DNA of 12,673 nt from Solirubrobacteraceae bacterium. GTDB lineage: Bacteria > Actinomycetota > Thermoleophilia > Solirubrobacterales > Solirubrobacteraceae. The stretch spans positions 1 to 12,673 of the forward strand of contig JAICUS010000117.1 of NCBI GenBank assembly GCA_025935735.1, written 5' to 3'. Made by a program: the position numbers and the translations under genes. Below are positions 3,630 to 12,673 of the stretch, piece after piece. The first letter of the stretch is position 1. Each line of letters opens with the position of its first letter. The notes under the pieces are model-generated. The model ran no database searches. It saw only the letters and a list, made by a program, of their open reading frames with translations, and was not told the origin of the DNA.

Positions 3630-5330
3630 ATGGGAGCCACGGGACGCGCGGCCGTGGCCGCGGCGGCGGCGCTGGCGCTGGCGGACGCGTCGATCGTGGC
3701 GCTGGCGCTGCCACCGCTGCTCGTGGAGCTGCACACCACGATCAGCGGCGTGGCGGCGATCGTCGGCGTCTACGCGCTCGTGCTCGCCGTAGGGCTCGTC
3801 GTGGCCGAGCGGCTGCCGCCGCGGCCGGGGGTCGTCGCCGGGGCGCTCGTCGTGTTCGCCGCCGGCTCGGCGCTGTGCGCGGTGGCGGGGTCGCTGGGCG
3901 CGCTGCTGGCCTTCCGCGCCGTCCAGGGCGCGGGAGCGGCGGTCGCGCTCCCGGGCGCGTTCGTCGCGCTGGACGCCGGCGCCTCCGCGGCCGGCCGCCG
4001 GCTCTGGCTCGGCGCCGCGCTGGCCGGCACCGCGGCCGGCCCGGCGCTCGGCGGCGCGCTCACCCAGGCCTTCGACTGGCGGGCGATCTTCGCGATCCAG
4101 GCGCCGATCGCGCTGGTCGCCGCGCTGGCCGCGGCGCGCGTTCCGGCCGCGCGGCCCGCGTCGGCGCCTCCCACGGACGCGCCGCGCGCCGGCTCGCCGC
4201 CCGCGCCGCCGCCTCCCTCACCTGCCGCCGTTCCGTTCGCGCCCGGGCGGACGCGCGCGGTCCTGATGGCCGCGCTCGTGCTCGTCGCCGCGGCCTTCAC
4301 CGCGGTCCTGTTCCTGCTCGTGCTGCAGCTGGTGGCGGGGTTCGCGTACTCCCCGCTGAAGGCCGCCGCCGCGGTGCTCGTGCTGCCGGCCGCGGCGCTC
4401 GTCGCCGGGGGATTGACCAGGCCCACCCACCCCGCGCTGCCGCGGGCGGCGGCCGGGGCGATGCTGGTGACCGGCGGGGCGGCGGCGCTGGCGTTCCTGC
4501 CCACGGCCGGGATCGGCTGGACGGTGCCGCCGCAGGTGCTCGCCGGGGCGGGGATGGGGCTCGCCGTGCCCGCGTTCGCCGGCGGCCTGCTGCCCGAGCG
4601 CACGCCGCGCGACGCGGCCCGGCTGCTGGCCGCGCGCAGCGCCGGGACGGTGCTGGTGCTGGCCATCCTCGCGCCGGTGGCCACGCACGCGCTGGACACC
4701 GCCACGGACCGGGCGGTGCTGCAGGGCACGGCGCTCGTGCTGGACGCGCGGCTGCCGCCGCTGCAGAAGCTCGACCTCGCGCCGGCGCTGCTCGACGGCG
4801 TGCAGACCGAGCGCCCGCGAGCCGGGCTGAAGGCCGCCGTCAACCGCCGGCGCGGCGAGTTCGCGGATCAGGCCGTGGCCTACCGGCAACTGGCGCAAAG
4901 GCTCGACGGCGTCGTGGTGCGGGCGGTGCAGGACGCGTTCCGGGCGGCGTATCTGATCGCCGGCGCGCTCGGGCTGCTGGGCGCCGCGCTGCTCGTGCCG
5001 CGGGCGGTCCGCGCCGCCGTCGGCGTCGCGGCGGCGGCCGCCGTGCTCGTCGTGGCGGTCTACGCGGTCGAGCACGACCGCCGCGCCCCGCCGGAGGTGG
5101 TGCTGCGCGATCCCTGCAAGCCGCGGCCGCTGCCCGACTCCGGCGGGCTGTCCGGCGCGCTCCAGAACCAGGCGCTGAAGCTGCTCGACCGCGCGGCCTG
5201 CCACGCCGGATCCAGCCGCGAGGAGCTCGTGCTCGCGCTGGCCGACCGGGACCGCGCACAGGCCTACCAGCGCCGCTACGGCGTCGACCCGCGCAGCATC
5301 GGCGGGCTGTTCAACCTACTCGGCGGCTGA
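3630..5330 (+). CDS. MFS transporter (DHA2-like) with extracytoplasmic C-terminal tail
   Basis: A 566-residue integral membrane protein. Six helices lie at about 10-32, 42-60, 66-86, 91-112, 125-146 and 150-170, with the MFS drug/H+ antiporter-like RAVQGAGAAVALPGAFVAL in helix 4. A Pro/Ala-rich cytoplasmic linker (172-208) follows, then five helices (about 210-352), a hydrophilic loop (353-435), and two more helices (438-456, 462-480). By this count 13 helices put the last 86 residues outside the cytoplasm. That tail carries Cys496 and Cys524, which could form a disulfide, and has a conserved look (LPDSGGLSG, SSREELVLALAD, YGVDPRSIG). It follows an ArsR-type regulator and probably exports the compound that the regulator senses. 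Helix limits and topology are by eye; substrate unknown. Confidence 0.87.
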   Translation: MGATGRAAVAAAAALALADASIVALALPPLLVELHTTISGVAAIVGVYALVLAVGLVVAERLPPRPGVVAGALVVFAAGSALCAVAGSLGALLAFRAVQGAGAAVALPGAFVALDAGASAAGRRLWLGAALAGTAAGPALGGALTQAFDWRAIFAIQAPIALVAALAAARVPAARPASAPPTDAPRAGSPPAPPPPSPAAVPFAPGRTRAVLMAALVLVAAAFTAVLFLLVLQLVAGFAYSPLKAAAAVLVLPAAALVAGGLTRPTHPALPRAAAGAMLVTGGAAALAFLPTAGIGWTVPPQVLAGAGMGLAVPAFAGGLLPERTPRDAARLLAARSAGTVLVLAILAPVATHALDTATDRAVLQGTALVLDARLPPLQKLDLAPALLDGVQTERPRAGLKAAVNRRRGEFADQAVAYRQLAQRLDGVVVRAVQDAFRAAYLIAGALGLLGAALLVPRAVRAAVGVAAAAAVLVVAVYAVEHDRRAPPEVVLRDPCKPRPLPDSGGLSGALQNQALKLLDRAACHAGSSREELVLALADRDRAQAYQRRYGVDPRSIGGLFNLLGG

Positions 5331-6192
5331 GCGCGGCCCGCAGGTTCCCGCCGGCGGCGTCCAACTGGCGCCGCGCCTCGGCGACCGGCGCGCCGGTGAG
5401 CAGCGCGAGGATCGCCGGCTTGACCTCGCCGCCGGCCTCCCGCAGCGCATCCCGCGCCTCGCCGTCCGAGCAGCCGGTGGCCAGGACGACGATCCGCTCC
5501 GCCCGCGCCGCGAGCTTCGCGTTGCCGGCGCGCAGGTCGACCATCAGGTTCCCGTAGGTCTTGCCGAGGCGGACCATGACCAGCGTCGAGAGCGTGTTCA
5601 GCACCAGCTTCTGCGCCGTCCCCGCCTTCATCCGGGTGGAGCCGGCGATGAACTCGGGCCCGGTGACCGCCTCGATCGCCACGTCCGCCAGCGCGGCCGC
5701 GGGGCTGCCGGGGTTGCTCGCCACGGCGACGGTGGCCGCGCCCGCGGCTCGGGCGTGCCGCAGCGCGCCGAGCACGTACGGTGTGCGGCCGCTCGCGCTG
5801 ATGCCCACCACCGCGTCCGCCGCCGTCACATCGGCCAGCGCCTCCGCGCCCGCCGCCTCGTCGTCCTCGGCGCCCTCGCTCGCCTCGGTGATCGCGGCCG
5901 GGCCGCCGGCGATCACCGCGACGACCCGGTCGGTGCCGAACGTCGGCCCGCACTCGCTCGCGTCCAGGACGCCCATCCGCCCCGCGGTGCCCGCGCCGGC
6001 GTAGACGAGCCGTCCGCCGGTGCGCAGGCGCTCGGCGATCAGGTCGACCGCCGCGGCGATCTCGCCGGCGGCCTCCCGTACGAGTCGTGCGACGGTCGCG
6101 TCCTGGTCGTTGACCAGCTCGACCAGCCGGCGCGTGGGCAGCAGGTCGATGTCCGCCCCCGCCGGGTCGCGCTGCTCGGTCGGCTCGGTCAC
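5311..6192 (-). CDS. murQ: N-acetylmuramic acid 6-phosphate etherase
   Basis: A 293-residue SIS-domain enzyme that splits the lactyl ether of MurNAc-6-phosphate to give GlcNAc-6-phosphate and D-lactate in cell-wall recycling. Family marks are IDLLPTRRLVELVNDQD near the start, GRLVYAGAGTAGRMGVLDASE (catalytic Glu80), GAEDDEAAGAEA (Glu109, matching the second catalytic glutamate of the family), GISASGRTPYVLGALRHAR, FIAGSTRMKAGTAQKLVLNTLST and GKTYGNLMVDL. Length is normal. It starts at GTG 6192, overlapping the kinase stop by 4 bases (GTGA), so it is the second gene of the operon; TACGAT 7 bases upstream may also give it its own leaderless transcript. Its 3' end overlaps the convergent MFS gene by 20 bp. 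The enzyme is cytosolic. Confidence 0.96.
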   Translation of the reverse strand: MTEPTEQRDPAGADIDLLPTRRLVELVNDQDATVARLVREAAGEIAAAVDLIAERLRTGGRLVYAGAGTAGRMGVLDASECGPTFGTDRVVAVIAGGPAAITEASEGAEDDEAAGAEALADVTAADAVVGISASGRTPYVLGALRHARAAGAATVAVASNPGSPAAALADVAIEAVTGPEFIAGSTRMKAGTAQKLVLNTLSTLVMVRLGKTYGNLMVDLRAGNAKLAARAERIVVLATGCSDGEARDALREAGGEVKPAILALLTGAPVAEARRQLDAAGGNLRAALSRRVG

Positions 6193-7256
6193 GCCGGCGA
6201 TCGTAGGTACTCGCGGTTGGCGGGCAGCCGGGCGGGATCGGCGACCGCGAGGCGGGCGAGCGCGACCGCGCCGTCGAGCGCGTCGCCGCGCGGCGGGACG
6301 AGCTCCACGTCGCCCAGCCCGTCCTGGAACGCGGCGAGCAGGCCGGGGAGGCGCCACAGCCCGCCGGCCCAGGAGACGCGGCGCGGCAGGCGCGGATCCA
6401 GCGCCGCGCGCGCCGTCGCCGCCAGCCGGCGGCCCGCCTCGGCGACGATCTCCGGGGCGGCCGCGGCCACGTCGGGCGCGAAGGCGGCCAGCCGGCGCGC
6501 GGCGTCCCGGTGCGGGTAGAGCTGGGCCGGCAGCGTCTCCGGCGGACCGAAGCGAGCGATGAGGCGCTCGAGCAGCGTGTGAGAGCCGCCCGCCCGTCCG
6601 TCGTGGGCGCGCAGCGCGGCCCGCAGGCCGGCCGCGCCGATCCAGGCGCCGCTGCCGTCGTCGCCCAGCAGGTGGCCCCAGCCGTCGCTGCGCACCCAGC
6701 AGCCGCGCAGGTCGGTGCCCAGCGCGACGGCGCCCGTGCCGGCGGCCACGACGACGCCCGGTGTCAATCCGAGCGCGCCCGCGTGGCTGGTCAGGACGTC
6801 CGAGGCGAGGAGCACGGCCGGCGTGCCGCACAGCGCGGCCAGGTCGCGTTGCAGCCTCTCCGCGTCTTCCGTCAGCGTGATCAGGCCGGCGAGACCGACG
6901 ACGACCGCGGCGACCGGCTCGCCGGGCCAGATCGCGCGCAGCTCGTCGAGCAGCCCGCCGCCGCCGCGCGGGCACGCGACCACCGCGTCCCCCACCCGCA
7001 GCCGGATGCCGCTGCCGCCGACGTCGATGCCGGCGACCGTGCGCGGCGGGAGCTCGAGCCGCCACTCCTCGCCGTCGCGCCGGGCCACGAACCCGCGCCC
7101 CGCGTCCGCCGCCAGCGCGGCCAGGTCGATCGGCGCCTCGGGGTCCGTGGCCAGCACGACGAGGGTCTCCTCGCGCGCCAGCGCGGCCAGCGCCTGGCGG
7201 GCCCGGACCAGCGGGAGCGGGCAGCGCAGCCCGCGGGCGTCGACTACGTGAGGCAC
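6189..7256 (-). CDS. TusA-domain / BadF-type MurNAc-GlcNAc kinase fusion (MurK-like)
   Basis: 355 residues in two parts. Residues 1-69 are a TusA/SirA-like sulfur-carrier domain: VVDARGLRCPLPLVRARQAL has the diagnostic CPxP (Cys12-Pro15), followed by ETLVVLATDPEAPIDLAALA and GRGFVARRDGEEWRLEL. Residues 73-345 are a BadF/BadG/BcrA ATPase-type sugar kinase: GIDVGGSGIRL (phosphate 1), Asp153 in LASDVLTSHAGALG, AAGTGAVALG (phosphate 2), GWGHLLGDDGSG and SWAGGLWR (adenosine). MurK of Clostridium belongs to this family and phosphorylates MurNAc and GlcNAc, and murQ follows with a 4-base overlap, so MurNAc is the likely substrate. The domains are in one frame with no stop; an in-frame GTG at about residue 57 is the only nearby alternative start. 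The fusion is unusual and the TusA role unknown. Confidence 0.9.
   Translation of the reverse strand: MPHVVDARGLRCPLPLVRARQALAALAREETLVVLATDPEAPIDLAALAADAGRGFVARRDGEEWRLELPPRTVAGIDVGGSGIRLRVGDAVVACPRGGGGLLDELRAIWPGEPVAAVVVGLAGLITLTEDAERLQRDLAALCGTPAVLLASDVLTSHAGALGLTPGVVVAAGTGAVALGTDLRGCWVRSDGWGHLLGDDGSGAWIGAAGLRAALRAHDGRAGGSHTLLERLIARFGPPETLPAQLYPHRDAARRLAAFAPDVAAAAPEIVAEAGRRLAATARAALDPRLPRRVSWAGGLWRLPGLLAAFQDGLGDVELVPPRGDALDGAVALARLAVADPARLPANREYLRSPA
6200..6205 (-). promoter_or_regulatory. Putative internal -10 element (TACGAT) before murQ
   Basis: On the minus strand TACGAT lies in the last codons of the kinase gene and is followed by 7 bases and GTG 6192. It fits the TANNNT-N7-start layout of other genes here and could allow murQ to be made without the kinase. 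It may instead be chance, because murQ can also be translated by coupling through the GTGA overlap. Confidence 0.3.
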
Positions 7257-7276
7257 GGAGTGGGTTCAATCATGCC

Positions 7277-8818
7277 GTGGGCGACATCGAGCTCCTGGTG
7301 TTCATGCTGCTCGCCGTCGCCCTGCTGGCGGGGCTCGGCCTGCGCAGCGGCGTGCCGTACCCGGTGGCGCTCGTGCTCGGCGGGCTGGTCATCGGCCTCA
7401 CGCCCGGGCTGCCGTCGCCCGAACTCGACCCGGACGTCGTGTTCTTCGTGTTCCTGCCGCCGCTGCTGTACTCGGCGGCGATCGGGGCCTCGTGGCCGGA
7501 GCTCAAGGCCAACGCGGGGCCGATCGTGCTGCTCGCGGTCGGCCTCGTGCTGCTGACGATCGCCGCGGTCGCCGCCGTGGCGAACTCCGTGATCGGCATC
7601 CCGTGGGCGGAGGCGTTCGTGCTCGGCGCGATCCTGGGCCCGACCGACCCGGTCTCGGCCGCCGCCGTGCTCGACCGGCTCGGGGTGACCGGGTACGCCA
7701 AGACGATCCTGGAGGGGGAGTCGCTGGTCAACGACGGCACCGGCCTCACCGCCTACAAGATCGGGCTCACCGCCGTCGCCTCGGGGGCCGGCTCGGCGCC
7801 GCACATCGCGCTGCAGTTCGTTGGCGTGGCCGCCGGCGGGATCGCCATCGGGCTGGCCGTCGGGTGGGTGTTCGCGCACCTGCGCCGGCTCGTCACCGAG
7901 CCGGCGCTGGACGTCACGCTGTCGCTCGTCACGCCGTTCGTGGCCTACGTGCCGGCCGAGCAGATCGGCGTCTCCGGCGTGCTCGCCGTGGTGGCGGCGG
8001 GGGTGTACGTGGGCGCGCGCTCGCTGGACATCATCGAGGCCGGCACCCGGCTGCGCACGCTGGCGTTCTGGGAGTCCACGAGCTTCCTGCTCGACGGCCT
8101 GCTGTTCCTGCTCATCGGCCTGGACATCCCCGTCATCCTGCGCGGCATCCAGGGCACGGACGCGCTGAGCCTGGCCGGCTACGCGCTGCTCATCACCACC
8201 GTGGTGATGGTCGTCCGGATGGCCTGGATGCTCCTGCTGCCGCCGCTGCTGCACTCGCACACGCCGCGTCCGGAGCGCCTGGCGATCGGCTGGAGCGGCA
8301 TGCGCGGCGCGCTCTCCCTCGCGGCCGCGCTGGCCATCGGCAGCCGCGGCTTCGCCGACCGCGACCTGGTCATCTTCATCGCCTACGCCGTCGTGGTGCT
8401 CACGCTCGCCGTGCCCGGGCTGACGCTGGCGCCGCTGCTGCGCCGGGTCGGGCTGACCGAGGACGAGTCGCGCCTGCGCGCGGATGCCGAGGCGCGGCTG
8501 CGGATCACCCACGCGGCGCTCGAGCGGCTCGAGGACCTGGCGGCCGACGGCGCGCCGGAGCACGTCGTGGCGCGGCTGCGGGAGCGCTACGAGTCCCGCA
8601 TCGAGCGGCTCGAGCGGCGCCTGGGCGAGAACCCGGAGACCGAGCACGACACCGATGTGGCCGTCAGCGCGCGGCTGCTGGCCGCGCTGATCGAGGCCGA
8701 GCGCGAGGACCTGCGGCGGATGCGCCGCGAGCGCGCCTACACCACCGAGACGCTGCGCGAGATCGAGCGCGAGCTCGACCTGGACGAGAGCCGCCTGCGC
8801 GCGCGGATCCGGCTCTGA
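7277..8818 (+). CDS. Na+/H+ antiporter, CPA1 family
   Basis: 513 residues. About 12 hydrophobic helices fill residues 5-390, with the CPA1 core motifs FLPPLLYSAAI (59-69), GAILGPTDPVSAAAVLDRL, ILEGESLVNDGTGLTAY with the ion-binding Asn152-Asp153 pair, and GWSGMRGALSLAAALAI (338-354). Residues 391-513 are a charged helical cytoplasmic tail (LRITHAALERLEDLAADG, RYESRIERLERRLGE) that may regulate transport. It exchanges protons for Na+ or another cation at the inner membrane. GTG 7277 gives the usual short N-terminus; only 20 bp separate it from the divergent kinase start, with no clear Shine-Dalgarno. It is the first gene of a plus-strand run with the DsrE, lipoprotein and ankyrin genes. Confidence 0.95.
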   Translation: MGDIELLVFMLLAVALLAGLGLRSGVPYPVALVLGGLVIGLTPGLPSPELDPDVVFFVFLPPLLYSAAIGASWPELKANAGPIVLLAVGLVLLTIAAVAAVANSVIGIPWAEAFVLGAILGPTDPVSAAAVLDRLGVTGYAKTILEGESLVNDGTGLTAYKIGLTAVASGAGSAPHIALQFVGVAAGGIAIGLAVGWVFAHLRRLVTEPALDVTLSLVTPFVAYVPAEQIGVSGVLAVVAAGVYVGARSLDIIEAGTRLRTLAFWESTSFLLDGLLFLLIGLDIPVILRGIQGTDALSLAGYALLITTVVMVVRMAWMLLLPPLLHSHTPRPERLAIGWSGMRGALSLAAALAIGSRGFADRDLVIFIAYAVVVLTLAVPGLTLAPLLRRVGLTEDESRLRADAEARLRITHAALERLEDLAADGAPEHVVARLRERYESRIERLERRLGENPETEHDTDVAVSARLLAALIEAEREDLRRMRRERAYTTETLREIERELDLDESRLRARIRL

Positions 8819-10390: not shown

Positions 10391-11014
10391 TCAAGCCGTG
10401 AAGTGGACCTTGCCGTTCGAGCGGGCGCGGGCCTGGGCGCGGTCGATGAAGTCCAGCCGCTTCAGCGCCGCGCGGAACAGGCGGGTGACGAGCTTCATCC
10501 GGGCGGTCTCCGAGCGCAGGTCGAGCAGGCCCTGCTTGGCGTCGAGGCCGAACTCGACGGTGGCGGCCATCTCGTAGGCCGTCATGCCGCCGATCTCCTC
10601 CTCGTCGGCCTCGCGGTCGGTGGCCTGGGAGACGAGGTCGGCGTAGGCGGCGTGCGCCTCGGCGGCCGCGTCGGCGTCGACCGTCTCGTCGCGGTCCTCG
10701 AGGAACTCGACGGTGCCGGCGGGGTAGGCGAGCTCCTCCTGGCGGGCCTCGATCCGGAACGCGCGCGTGCCGCGGGCCACGAGGTTCAGCCGGCCGTCGG
10801 GCATGCGCTCGAGCACCTCGGCGATCTCGCACGCGCAGCCGACCTCGCGCAGCCCGTCGTCGGCCAGCCAGACGATCCCGAACTCCGACTCCTCCTCGAG
10901 GCAGCGGGCCATCATCGTCTTGTAGCGCTCCTCGAAGATGTGGAGCGGGACCAGCTCGCTCGGCAGGGCGACGATGCCCAGCGGGAACAGGGGGAAGTCC
11001 CGGACCAGCGGCAC
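10391..11014 (-). CDS. Lon N-terminal (LON substrate-binding) domain protein
   Basis: 207 residues. RDFPLFPLGIVALPSELVPLHIFEERYKTMM (5-35) and the following strands EFGIVWLADDGLREVGCACEIAEVLERMPDGRLNLVARGTRAFRI (44-88) are the PUA-like LON domain that forms the N-terminus of Lon protease. The helical part (115-195) follows, but there is no AAA+ or protease domain, as in the stand-alone LON-domain proteins common in bacteria. It is presumably cytosolic and binds protein; exact role unknown. GTG 11014 is chosen because family members begin a few residues before FPLFPL and TAGACT lies 8 bases upstream. It diverges from the methyltransferase gene and converges with the ankyrin gene. Confidence 0.92.
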   Translation of the reverse strand: MPLVRDFPLFPLGIVALPSELVPLHIFEERYKTMMARCLEEESEFGIVWLADDGLREVGCACEIAEVLERMPDGRLNLVARGTRAFRIEARQEELAYPAGTVEFLEDRDETVDADAAAEAHAAYADLVSQATDREADEEEIGGMTAYEMAATVEFGLDAKQGLLDLRSETARMKLVTRLFRAALKRLDFIDRAQARARSNGKVHFTA

Positions 11015-12029: not shown

Positions 12030-12673
12030 GTGCCCAACAGCCGTGACTTGTCTGAGCCCAGACCGTGGCTCGACTCTCAGCGCCGCTCGCGCGGGCGGCG
12101 CCTGGCCGCCCTGCGCGCCCGCCGGCGCCGCTGGTCGCTGCGCAGCGGCCTCGGCGTGGCGCTCGCGTCGCTGACCGTCGCCACCGGCGGCGCGCTCGCC
12201 GCCGGCTCCACCGGCGGCGCGTCCGCGCCGGCCGCCTCGTCCGCATCGTCCGCCAAGACCGGCACGAGCACGGTCAAAGCGGTCCAGCGGGCGCTCGGCA
12301 TCAGCGCCGACGGCATCGCCGGCCCGCAGACGCGGCGGGCGATCAAGCGCTTCCAGCGCACCCACGGCCTGACGGTCGACGGCGTGATCGGCCCGGCGAC
12401 GCTGGGCGCGCTCGGCATCTCGGCCACGCCCGCGCGCTCCAGCCTCCACGACGTCGGCGACCCCGAGGCCGAGCTGGCCAAGATCGCGGCGTGCGAGTCC
12501 GGCGGTGACCCGACCGCGGTCTCCCGCGACGGCCACTACCGCGGCAAGTACCAGTTCACCCGCGCCACCTGGCGCTCGCTGGGCGCCACCGGCGACCCGG
12601 CCAAGGCGCCGGAGGCCACCCAGGACGCGATGGCGGCCAAGCTGCTCGCGCTGCGCGGCACCGCGCCCTGGCC
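12030..12673 (+). CDS. Peptidoglycan-binding, Rpf-like transglycosylase (3' end cut by window edge)
   Basis: 214 codons are present before the edge. Order of parts: a very basic cytoplasmic leader (1-38, with RRSRGRRLAALRARRRRW), one hydrophobic segment (about 39-58) that is a signal or anchor, a Ser/Ala-rich spacer, a PG_binding_1 domain (about 79-128: VKAVQRALGISADGIAGPQTRRAIKRFQRTHGLTVDGVIGPATLGALGI), and an Rpf-type transglycosylase domain from 147 (KIAACESGGDPTAVSRDGHYRGKYQFTRATW) with catalytic Glu156. Such enzymes cut the glycan backbone of peptidoglycan outside the cell. GTG 12030 is fixed by AAGGAG at 12015-12020 with a 9-base spacer and follows a c-di-AMP riboswitch, a known pairing in actinobacteria. 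Translation from this frame overrides overlapping frames that lack family content. Confidence 0.94.
   Translation, partial: MPNSRDLSEPRPWLDSQRRSRGRRLAALRARRRRWSLRSGLGVALASLTVATGGALAAGSTGGASAPAASSASSAKTGTSTVKAVQRALGISADGIAGPQTRRAIKRFQRTHGLTVDGVIGPATLGALGISATPARSSLHDVGDPEAELAKIAACESGGDPTAVSRDGHYRGKYQFTRATWRSLGATGDPAKAPEATQDAMAAKLLALRGTAPW

What the first reader, a model, noticed from the sequence alone, without database searches (positions are those of the whole stretch)
6189..7256. TusA sulfur-carrier domain fused to a MurNAc/GlcNAc kinase
The first 69 residues carry a complete TusA-type domain with its CPxP cysteine (Cys12), directly continued, without stop or frame change, by a BadF-family amino-sugar kinase with all nucleotide-binding motifs. 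The kinase is operonic with murQ. I know no described link between TusA-type persulfide carriers and muropeptide recycling. The domain could sense redox or sulfur state and tune the kinase, deliver sulfur, or act as a structural cap.
Basis: partly seen in the sequence, partly recalled or inferred. Interest (0 to 1): 0.75.

Follow-up and report, generated by a model that had tools for sequence, protein, structure and literature searches.

The report
Sulfur-carrier domain fused to sugar kinase
In a narrow group of bacteria seen so far only in metagenomes, a small sulfur-carrier gene has become the front end of a cell-wall-sugar kinase, most likely because a kinase-murQ gene pair was inserted into the tail of the carrier gene: a genuine but probably accidental gene fusion whose functional meaning is untested.

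The parts
6189..7256 (-). fused tusA-kinase gene, GTG start, TGA stop, 355 aa
   Evidence: same architecture in P0001-P0003
7047..7256 (-). TusA domain, residues 1-70; Cys12 codon at 7223-7221; Asp38 and Asp44 align with E. coli TusA Asp45 and Asp51
   Evidence: residues from passages of PMC2854127
6189..7046 (-). BadF/MurK-type amino-sugar kinase domain, residues 71-355, no start codon of its own at the domain boundary; catalytic Asp153
   Evidence: model residues 71-339 align with 8zo3 residues 1-306
5311..6192 (-). murQ, MurNAc-6-phosphate etherase, GTG start overlapping the kinase stop (GTGA), 293 aa
5311..5330 (-). last codons of murQ (LSRRVG*), antisense to the end of the MFS gene; resembles the tail of stand-alone tusA (LSPRAG*/LSRRAG*): proposed downstream edge of the inserted segment
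7038..7055 (-). TusA/kinase junction, residues 68-73 (ELPPRT): proposed upstream edge of the inserted segment
7257..7276 (.). 20-bp divergent gap between the tusA-kinase start and the exchanger start; the divergent tusA/exchanger pair is kept in seven order-mates
7277..8818 (+). Na+/H+ exchanger (PF00999), conserved divergent neighbour of tusA
3630..5330 (+). MFS transporter (PF07690), convergent; its 3' end overlaps murQ here and overlaps or lies near the tusA end in order-mates

Best explanation
A real two-domain protein that arose when a kinase-murQ pair was inserted into the last codons of a native stand-alone tusA gene, between the TusA core and the convergent MFS gene. The insert has no kinase start codon at the domain boundary (shown for the window) and probably lacks murQ's own end (inferred), so tusA now supplies promoter, start codon and 5' coding region, and the old tusA tail ends murQ. 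Both domains keep their key residues. Most likely the kinase phosphorylates MurNAc and/or GlcNAc and MurQ converts MurNAc-6P to GlcNAc-6P, while the TusA domain goes on as a tethered sulfur carrier or a tolerated passenger, without regulating the kinase. Shown: fusion, its recurrence in relatives, synteny, empty site in order-mate DNA. Inferred: empty sites in the closest relatives (from protein tails only), direction of the event, expression from the tusA promoter, both activities, lack of coupling.
For: Seven order-mates G927-G933 (G927 and G928 are 100% identical over the 14 kb compared, so six distinct loci) have tusA divergent from the exchanger as here, with the wider order HAD-HTH-MFS-tusA-exchanger-ANK-LON-methyltransferase kept wholly or in part; tusA is stand-alone, about 70-82 codons, and no kinase or murQ is there. 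Six of the seven (five distinct) have MFS convergent; tusA overlaps its 3' end by 15-21 bp in three and stops 19-78 bp short in the others. In five of the seven (four distinct) a kinase-murQ pair lies on another contig. Stand-alone TusA reach 89% identity; 30 of the 120 listed are at 80% or more by my alignment, against 5 kinase clusters at 77% or more, the next by E-value at 53%. Of 120 listed stand-alone TusA, 67 have tails resembling the antisense of the MFS 3' end in one of three frames (31 SPRAG-like, 3 RGSTP, 33 AAEE-like); the three RGSTP tails match the window frame at 11 of 17 residues each, the other two classes only over 4-6 residues. The kinase clade groups with kinases mostly named Streptomyces (94/92), apart from order-mates' kinases. 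All 39 columns conserved in at least 90% of 120 stand-alone TusA are unchanged in the four fused TusA; kinase motifs intact.
Against: No DNA of an empty site from the closest relatives was available; short tails such as SPRAG* are weak evidence one by one, and a GGGTGA overlap with a separate kinase gene could give the same end. Of the 120 tails, 53 do not fit (13 QNL-like, 40 other). P0004 (84% identical kinase) appears unfused yet branches inside the clade, and in the poorly resolved TusA tree P0003's TusA lies apart from the other three fused ones among stand-alone TusA, so fusion may have happened twice or been undone. Insertion rather than loss rests on outgroup parsimony. MurQ does not group with Streptomyces but weakly with Micrococcaceae and a Propionibacteriales MAG (92/83), so the donor is unresolved. 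Conservation of TusA after fusion also fits functional coupling.
Confidence: 0.68

Rival explanations
1. Functional coupling: the TusA domain senses persulfide or redox state at Cys12 (or delivers sulfur) and tunes the amino-sugar kinase, linking sulfur status to wall-sugar recycling.
For: Cys12, Asp38 and Asp44 are among the 39 conserved columns kept in four fused proteins; between window and P0003 the 11 differences in 70 residues all fall outside those columns (hypergeometric 4e-5, which assumes independent sites and divergence after fusion); about four residues link the domains; order-mates G927-G933 each have a second PF01206 gene, so this copy is freer to specialise.
Against: Fusion seen in one small clade only; no kinase or murQ beside tusA in 28 of 28 order-mate loci; boundaries explained by insertion; the apparently unfused P0004 has the same kinase features. 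Full conservation is common in stand-alone TusA too: 71 of 120 show no deviation.
Confidence: 0.13
2. Passive leader: the TusA domain has lost its sulfur role and only serves as a translation leader or solubility cap for the kinase, a second TusA paralog doing the sulfur work.
For: A second PF01206 gene in 7 of 7 close order-mates, and no DsrE-family (PF02635) gene found in those 7.
Against: No change at any of 39 conserved TusA columns in four fused proteins.
Confidence: 0.15
3. Artefact: assembly or frameshift error, or kinase translated separately from an internal start.
For: GTG57 exists in the window with a G-rich stretch before it; P0002 has Leu57 and P0003 Val58, whose codons are unknown; P0004 looks like an unfused kinase.
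Against: P0001 (20 member sequences, 2 contigs), P0002 and P0003 carry the same fusion; in the window no start codon lies between codons 57 and 88, and codon 88 lies after the DxGxS motif.
Confidence: 0.04

Closest known systems
MurK, MurNAc/GlcNAc kinase of Clostridium acetobutylicum (8zo3) and MurK of Tannerella forsythia (8oqw, 8ow9; PMC10465942)
   Different: N-terminal TusA domain; N-lobe shorter than in nearest relatives; Asp191 at the position of T. forsythia Ser133, which the paper ties to room for the lactyl group, so MurNAc use is not certain.
TusA (E. coli, 1dcj, 3lvj; PMC2854127)
   Same: CPxP cysteine and the aspartates equivalent to Asp45 and Asp51.
   Different: Below the NCBIfam TusA equivalog cut-off (27.3 of 78 bits); fused to a kinase; no DsrE-family gene found in 7 order-mates.
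Stand-alone TusA beside the Na+/H+ exchanger in the same order (G927-G933) and metagenome clusters P0134-P0253
   Same: Same gene family, up to 89% identical; same place in G927-G933.
   Different: Not fused, 65-89 aa; no kinase or murQ beside it where DNA could be read.
Kinase-murQ gene pairs of order-mates (G927-G930, G932) and of Arthrobacter and Paenarthrobacter (L003, L010)
   Same: Same two families, kinase directly upstream of murQ.
   Different: No TusA domain; order-mates' kinases form a different branch; L003/L010 kinases only 36-37% identical.

Membership tests
TusA superfamily (PF01206) | profile match over curated cut-off | tested here: met
   52.4 bits against 28.6
TusA superfamily (PF01206) | CPxP cysteine and conserved aspartates (E. 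coli Cys19, Asp45, Asp51) | tested here: met
   Cys12, Asp38, Asp44 by the displayed alignment to 1dcj/3lvj; residues named in passages of PMC2854127
TusA equivalog (NF001423) | score over curated cut-off | tested here: not met
   27.3 bits against 78
TusA equivalog (tRNA 2-thiolation relay) | TusBCD partners in the genome | tested here: inconclusive
   window genome not held; DsrE family PF02635 in 0 of 7 close order-mates and 4 of 18 genomes searched; DsrH/TusB and TusE not searched
BadF/BadG/BcrA/BcrD ATPase family (PF01869) | profile match over curated cut-off | tested here: met
   48.8 bits against 31.5, profile 102-244 of 271
MurK-type MurNAc kinase | catalytic Asp and phosphate-binding residues | tested here: met
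   Asp153, Thr174, Gly175, Asp199, taking the equal-length match 149-220 / 91-162 to 8oqw as ungapped (coordinates, alignment not displayed); residues from passages of PMC10465942
MurK-type MurNAc kinase | open pocket for the lactyl group (T. forsythia Ser133-Pro134-Leu135) | tested here: inconclusive
   window has Asp191-Gly192-Trp193 by the same mapping; C. acetobutylicum MurK has Gly-Gly-Trp in the displayed alignment
MurK-type MurNAc kinase | phosphorylation of MurNAc or GlcNAc | not testable with these tools
   needs enzyme assay
MurQ (TIGR00274) | score over curated cut-off | tested here: met
   340.7 bits against 302
widespread TusA-kinase fusion family | same architecture in several unrelated lineages | tested here: inconclusive
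   3 of 120 listed hits (of 1402) and 3 of 16 hits, all in one kinase clade; 0 of 28 order-mate TusA loci have kinase or murQ beside tusA

The most novel reading that the evidence does not exclude
The fusion created a persulfide-gated amino-sugar kinase: sulfur or redox state read at Cys12 switches wall-sugar recycling on or off, fixed by selection soon after kinase-murQ landed in the tusA tail.
Probability: 0.1. Interest if true: 0.75.

Novelty: new variant of a known kind. Interest (0 to 1): 0.38.

Why it matters
It looks like an example, caught soon after the event, of how a two-function protein can form: a gene pair inserted into the 3' end of a short gene, with unfused TusA and apparent empty sites still found in relatives. 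If coupling were shown, it would be a link between persulfide carriers and peptidoglycan recycling that my paper searches (open-licence papers only, judged from titles and abstract starts) did not show.

Tried and rejected
Search of the window's own genome: not held. Genome-contig scan with the fusion protein: nothing; the second scan, with MurQ, gave 80 loci, none with TusA in the stretch held, 8 with a kinase hit. The phylum sample and the class sample centred on G393 gave only TusA of 51% identity or less. The exchanger search and a LON-domain search of 30 handles pointed to G382, whose order held the close TusA; G382 itself has none.

I first took the SPRAG* tails as tusA stops overlapping a separate kinase start; the three tail classes matching three antisense frames of the MFS end made an empty site the better reading, though the other reading is not excluded. 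I first expected the fused TusA to be the cell's only TusA; G927-G933 have two PF01206 genes each, so I dropped that. Relocation of the order's own kinase-murQ pair was considered; the kinase tree (81 rows: the window, P0001-P0070 of the hits and 10 order kinases) speaks against it, the MurQ tree is weak and the window's branch in it is long. Alignments A1 and A3 laid kinase N-termini on TusA columns and were not used further. The model was built on A2, where few rows cover TusA, so the low confidence there (block means 46-67) says nothing about its fold; no fold search covered TusA. TusA tree: 68 columns for 124 rows, poorly resolved. Paper searches combining TusA with kinase, fusion, Actinobacteria or MurQ (16 of 16, 20 of 23, 10 of 10 and 20 of 110 papers listed) showed nothing that describes this architecture. 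Two further searches were on MurK. Of papers I saw passages only: PMC10465942, PMC5061867, PMC2854127.

Full report
What is there. One frame on the minus strand, 7256 to 6189, encodes 355 residues with TusA at 4-67 and a BadF-family kinase after about residue 70. The kinase stop and the murQ start share GTGA; murQ (5311-6192) passes the MurQ models. Upstream, 20 bp away, a Na+/H+ exchanger runs the other way; downstream, an MFS gene converges and its last codons lie antisense to the end of murQ.

Is it real? Three further clusters have the same two domains: P0001 (96%, 20 member sequences, 2 contigs), P0002 (89%) and P0003 (77%), all of metagenome (jgi) source. In the window no start codon lies between codons 57 and 88; the GTG at 57 is replaced by Leu in P0002 and Ser, followed by Val58, in P0003, and since their DNA was not seen an internal start there is unlikely but not excluded. 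The fusion is rare: 3 of the 120 listed of 1402 hits (only the 7993 candidates sharing most words were scored), and 3 of 16 hits when the TusA part alone was scored among proteins of 0.55-1.75 times 355 aa.

Where the TusA half comes from. The same domain is common as a stand-alone gene: 1931 hits, the best 120 listed being 65-89 aa and up to 89% identical (the length filter of that search shuts out fusions). Among 232 genomes of the order reached through G382, 28 have a TusA at E up to 1e-8. I fetched wider surroundings of 20 of the 28; none has kinase or murQ in the stretch fetched, and neither do the short loci of all 28. In the seven closest (G927-G933; G927 and G928 are identical over 14 kb, so six distinct loci) tusA is divergent from the exchanger exactly as here, and the longer order HAD-HTH-MFS-tusA-exchanger-ANK-LON-methyltransferase is kept wholly or in part. 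In six of the seven MFS is the convergent neighbour; tusA overlaps its 3' end by 15-21 bp in three and stops 19-78 bp short in the other three. In G932 (L178) another gene follows tusA. Three metagenome TusA ORFs with N-terminal extensions (P0125, P0128, P0133) read antisense through an exchanger: 65-67% identity to the antisense frame of the window's exchanger, so the same divergent pair exists there.

The insertion site. The window's minus strand across the MFS end reads, in its three frames...RSAAE*...QPPSRLNSPPMLRGSTP* and ...RAALSRRVG*, the last being murQ. Of 120 listed stand-alone TusA tails, 33 are AAEE-like, 3 end RLRGSTP and 31 end SPRAG, SRRAG or close to it; 13 are QNL-like (as in L178) and 40 other. 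The three RGSTP tails match the window frame at 11 of 17 residues, which I take as good evidence for an empty site; the other two classes match over a few residues only. The reading is that in close relatives tusA runs into the MFS end directly, and that in the window kinase-murQ lies between the TusA core and that end, murQ ending in what looks like the old tusA tail.

Where the kinase half comes from. The window and P0001-P0005 form one kinase clade (100/100), grouped (94/92, just under the tool's mark) with eleven kinases P0006-P0015 and P0017, eight of them named Streptomyces. The kinases that in order-mates stand next to murQ form another branch (98/93). The MurQ tree sets the window apart from order-mates (92/73) and joins it weakly to Micrococcaceae and a Propionibacteriales MAG (92/83). 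Acquisition from another actinobacterium is therefore likelier than relocation, with the donor unresolved. P0004, which starts at the kinase on a 1505-bp contig and seems unfused, branches between P0003 and the other fused ones, and P0003's TusA lies apart from the other fused TusA in a poorly resolved tree, so the number of fusion events is open.

Verdict. Real, rare, probably formed by insertion of kinase-murQ into the tusA tail; functional coupling possible, not shown.

Noticed in passing
window 7256-7277 and L178-L184: tusA divergent from a Na+/H+ exchanger is kept in seven order-mates; whether the pair is functionally linked is unknown.
   Followed up: partly
P0121, P0127, P0129 (metagenome proteins): Other long ORFs hold a related TusA domain together with PF03334 (P0121), PF01019 (P0127) or acetyltransferase families such as PF00583 (P0129); gene fusions or gene-calling artefacts.
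   Followed up: no
window about 6951-6965, minus strand (residues 98-102 of the fused protein): Kinases of the window clade lack an N-lobe stretch of about 18 residues present in the nearest relatives; by recall of the MurK passages this is near the N-acetyl pocket.
   Followed up: partly
G927-G933: A second PF01206 gene in each of the seven genomes, at another locus.
   Followed up: no
window 12030-12671, plus strand: Protein with peptidoglycan-binding and transglycosylase-like domains (PF01471, PF06737), cut by the window end.
   Followed up: no
window 10391-11014, minus strand: Stand-alone Lon substrate-binding domain protein; a relative lies near tusA in most of the order-mate loci read.
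   Followed up: no
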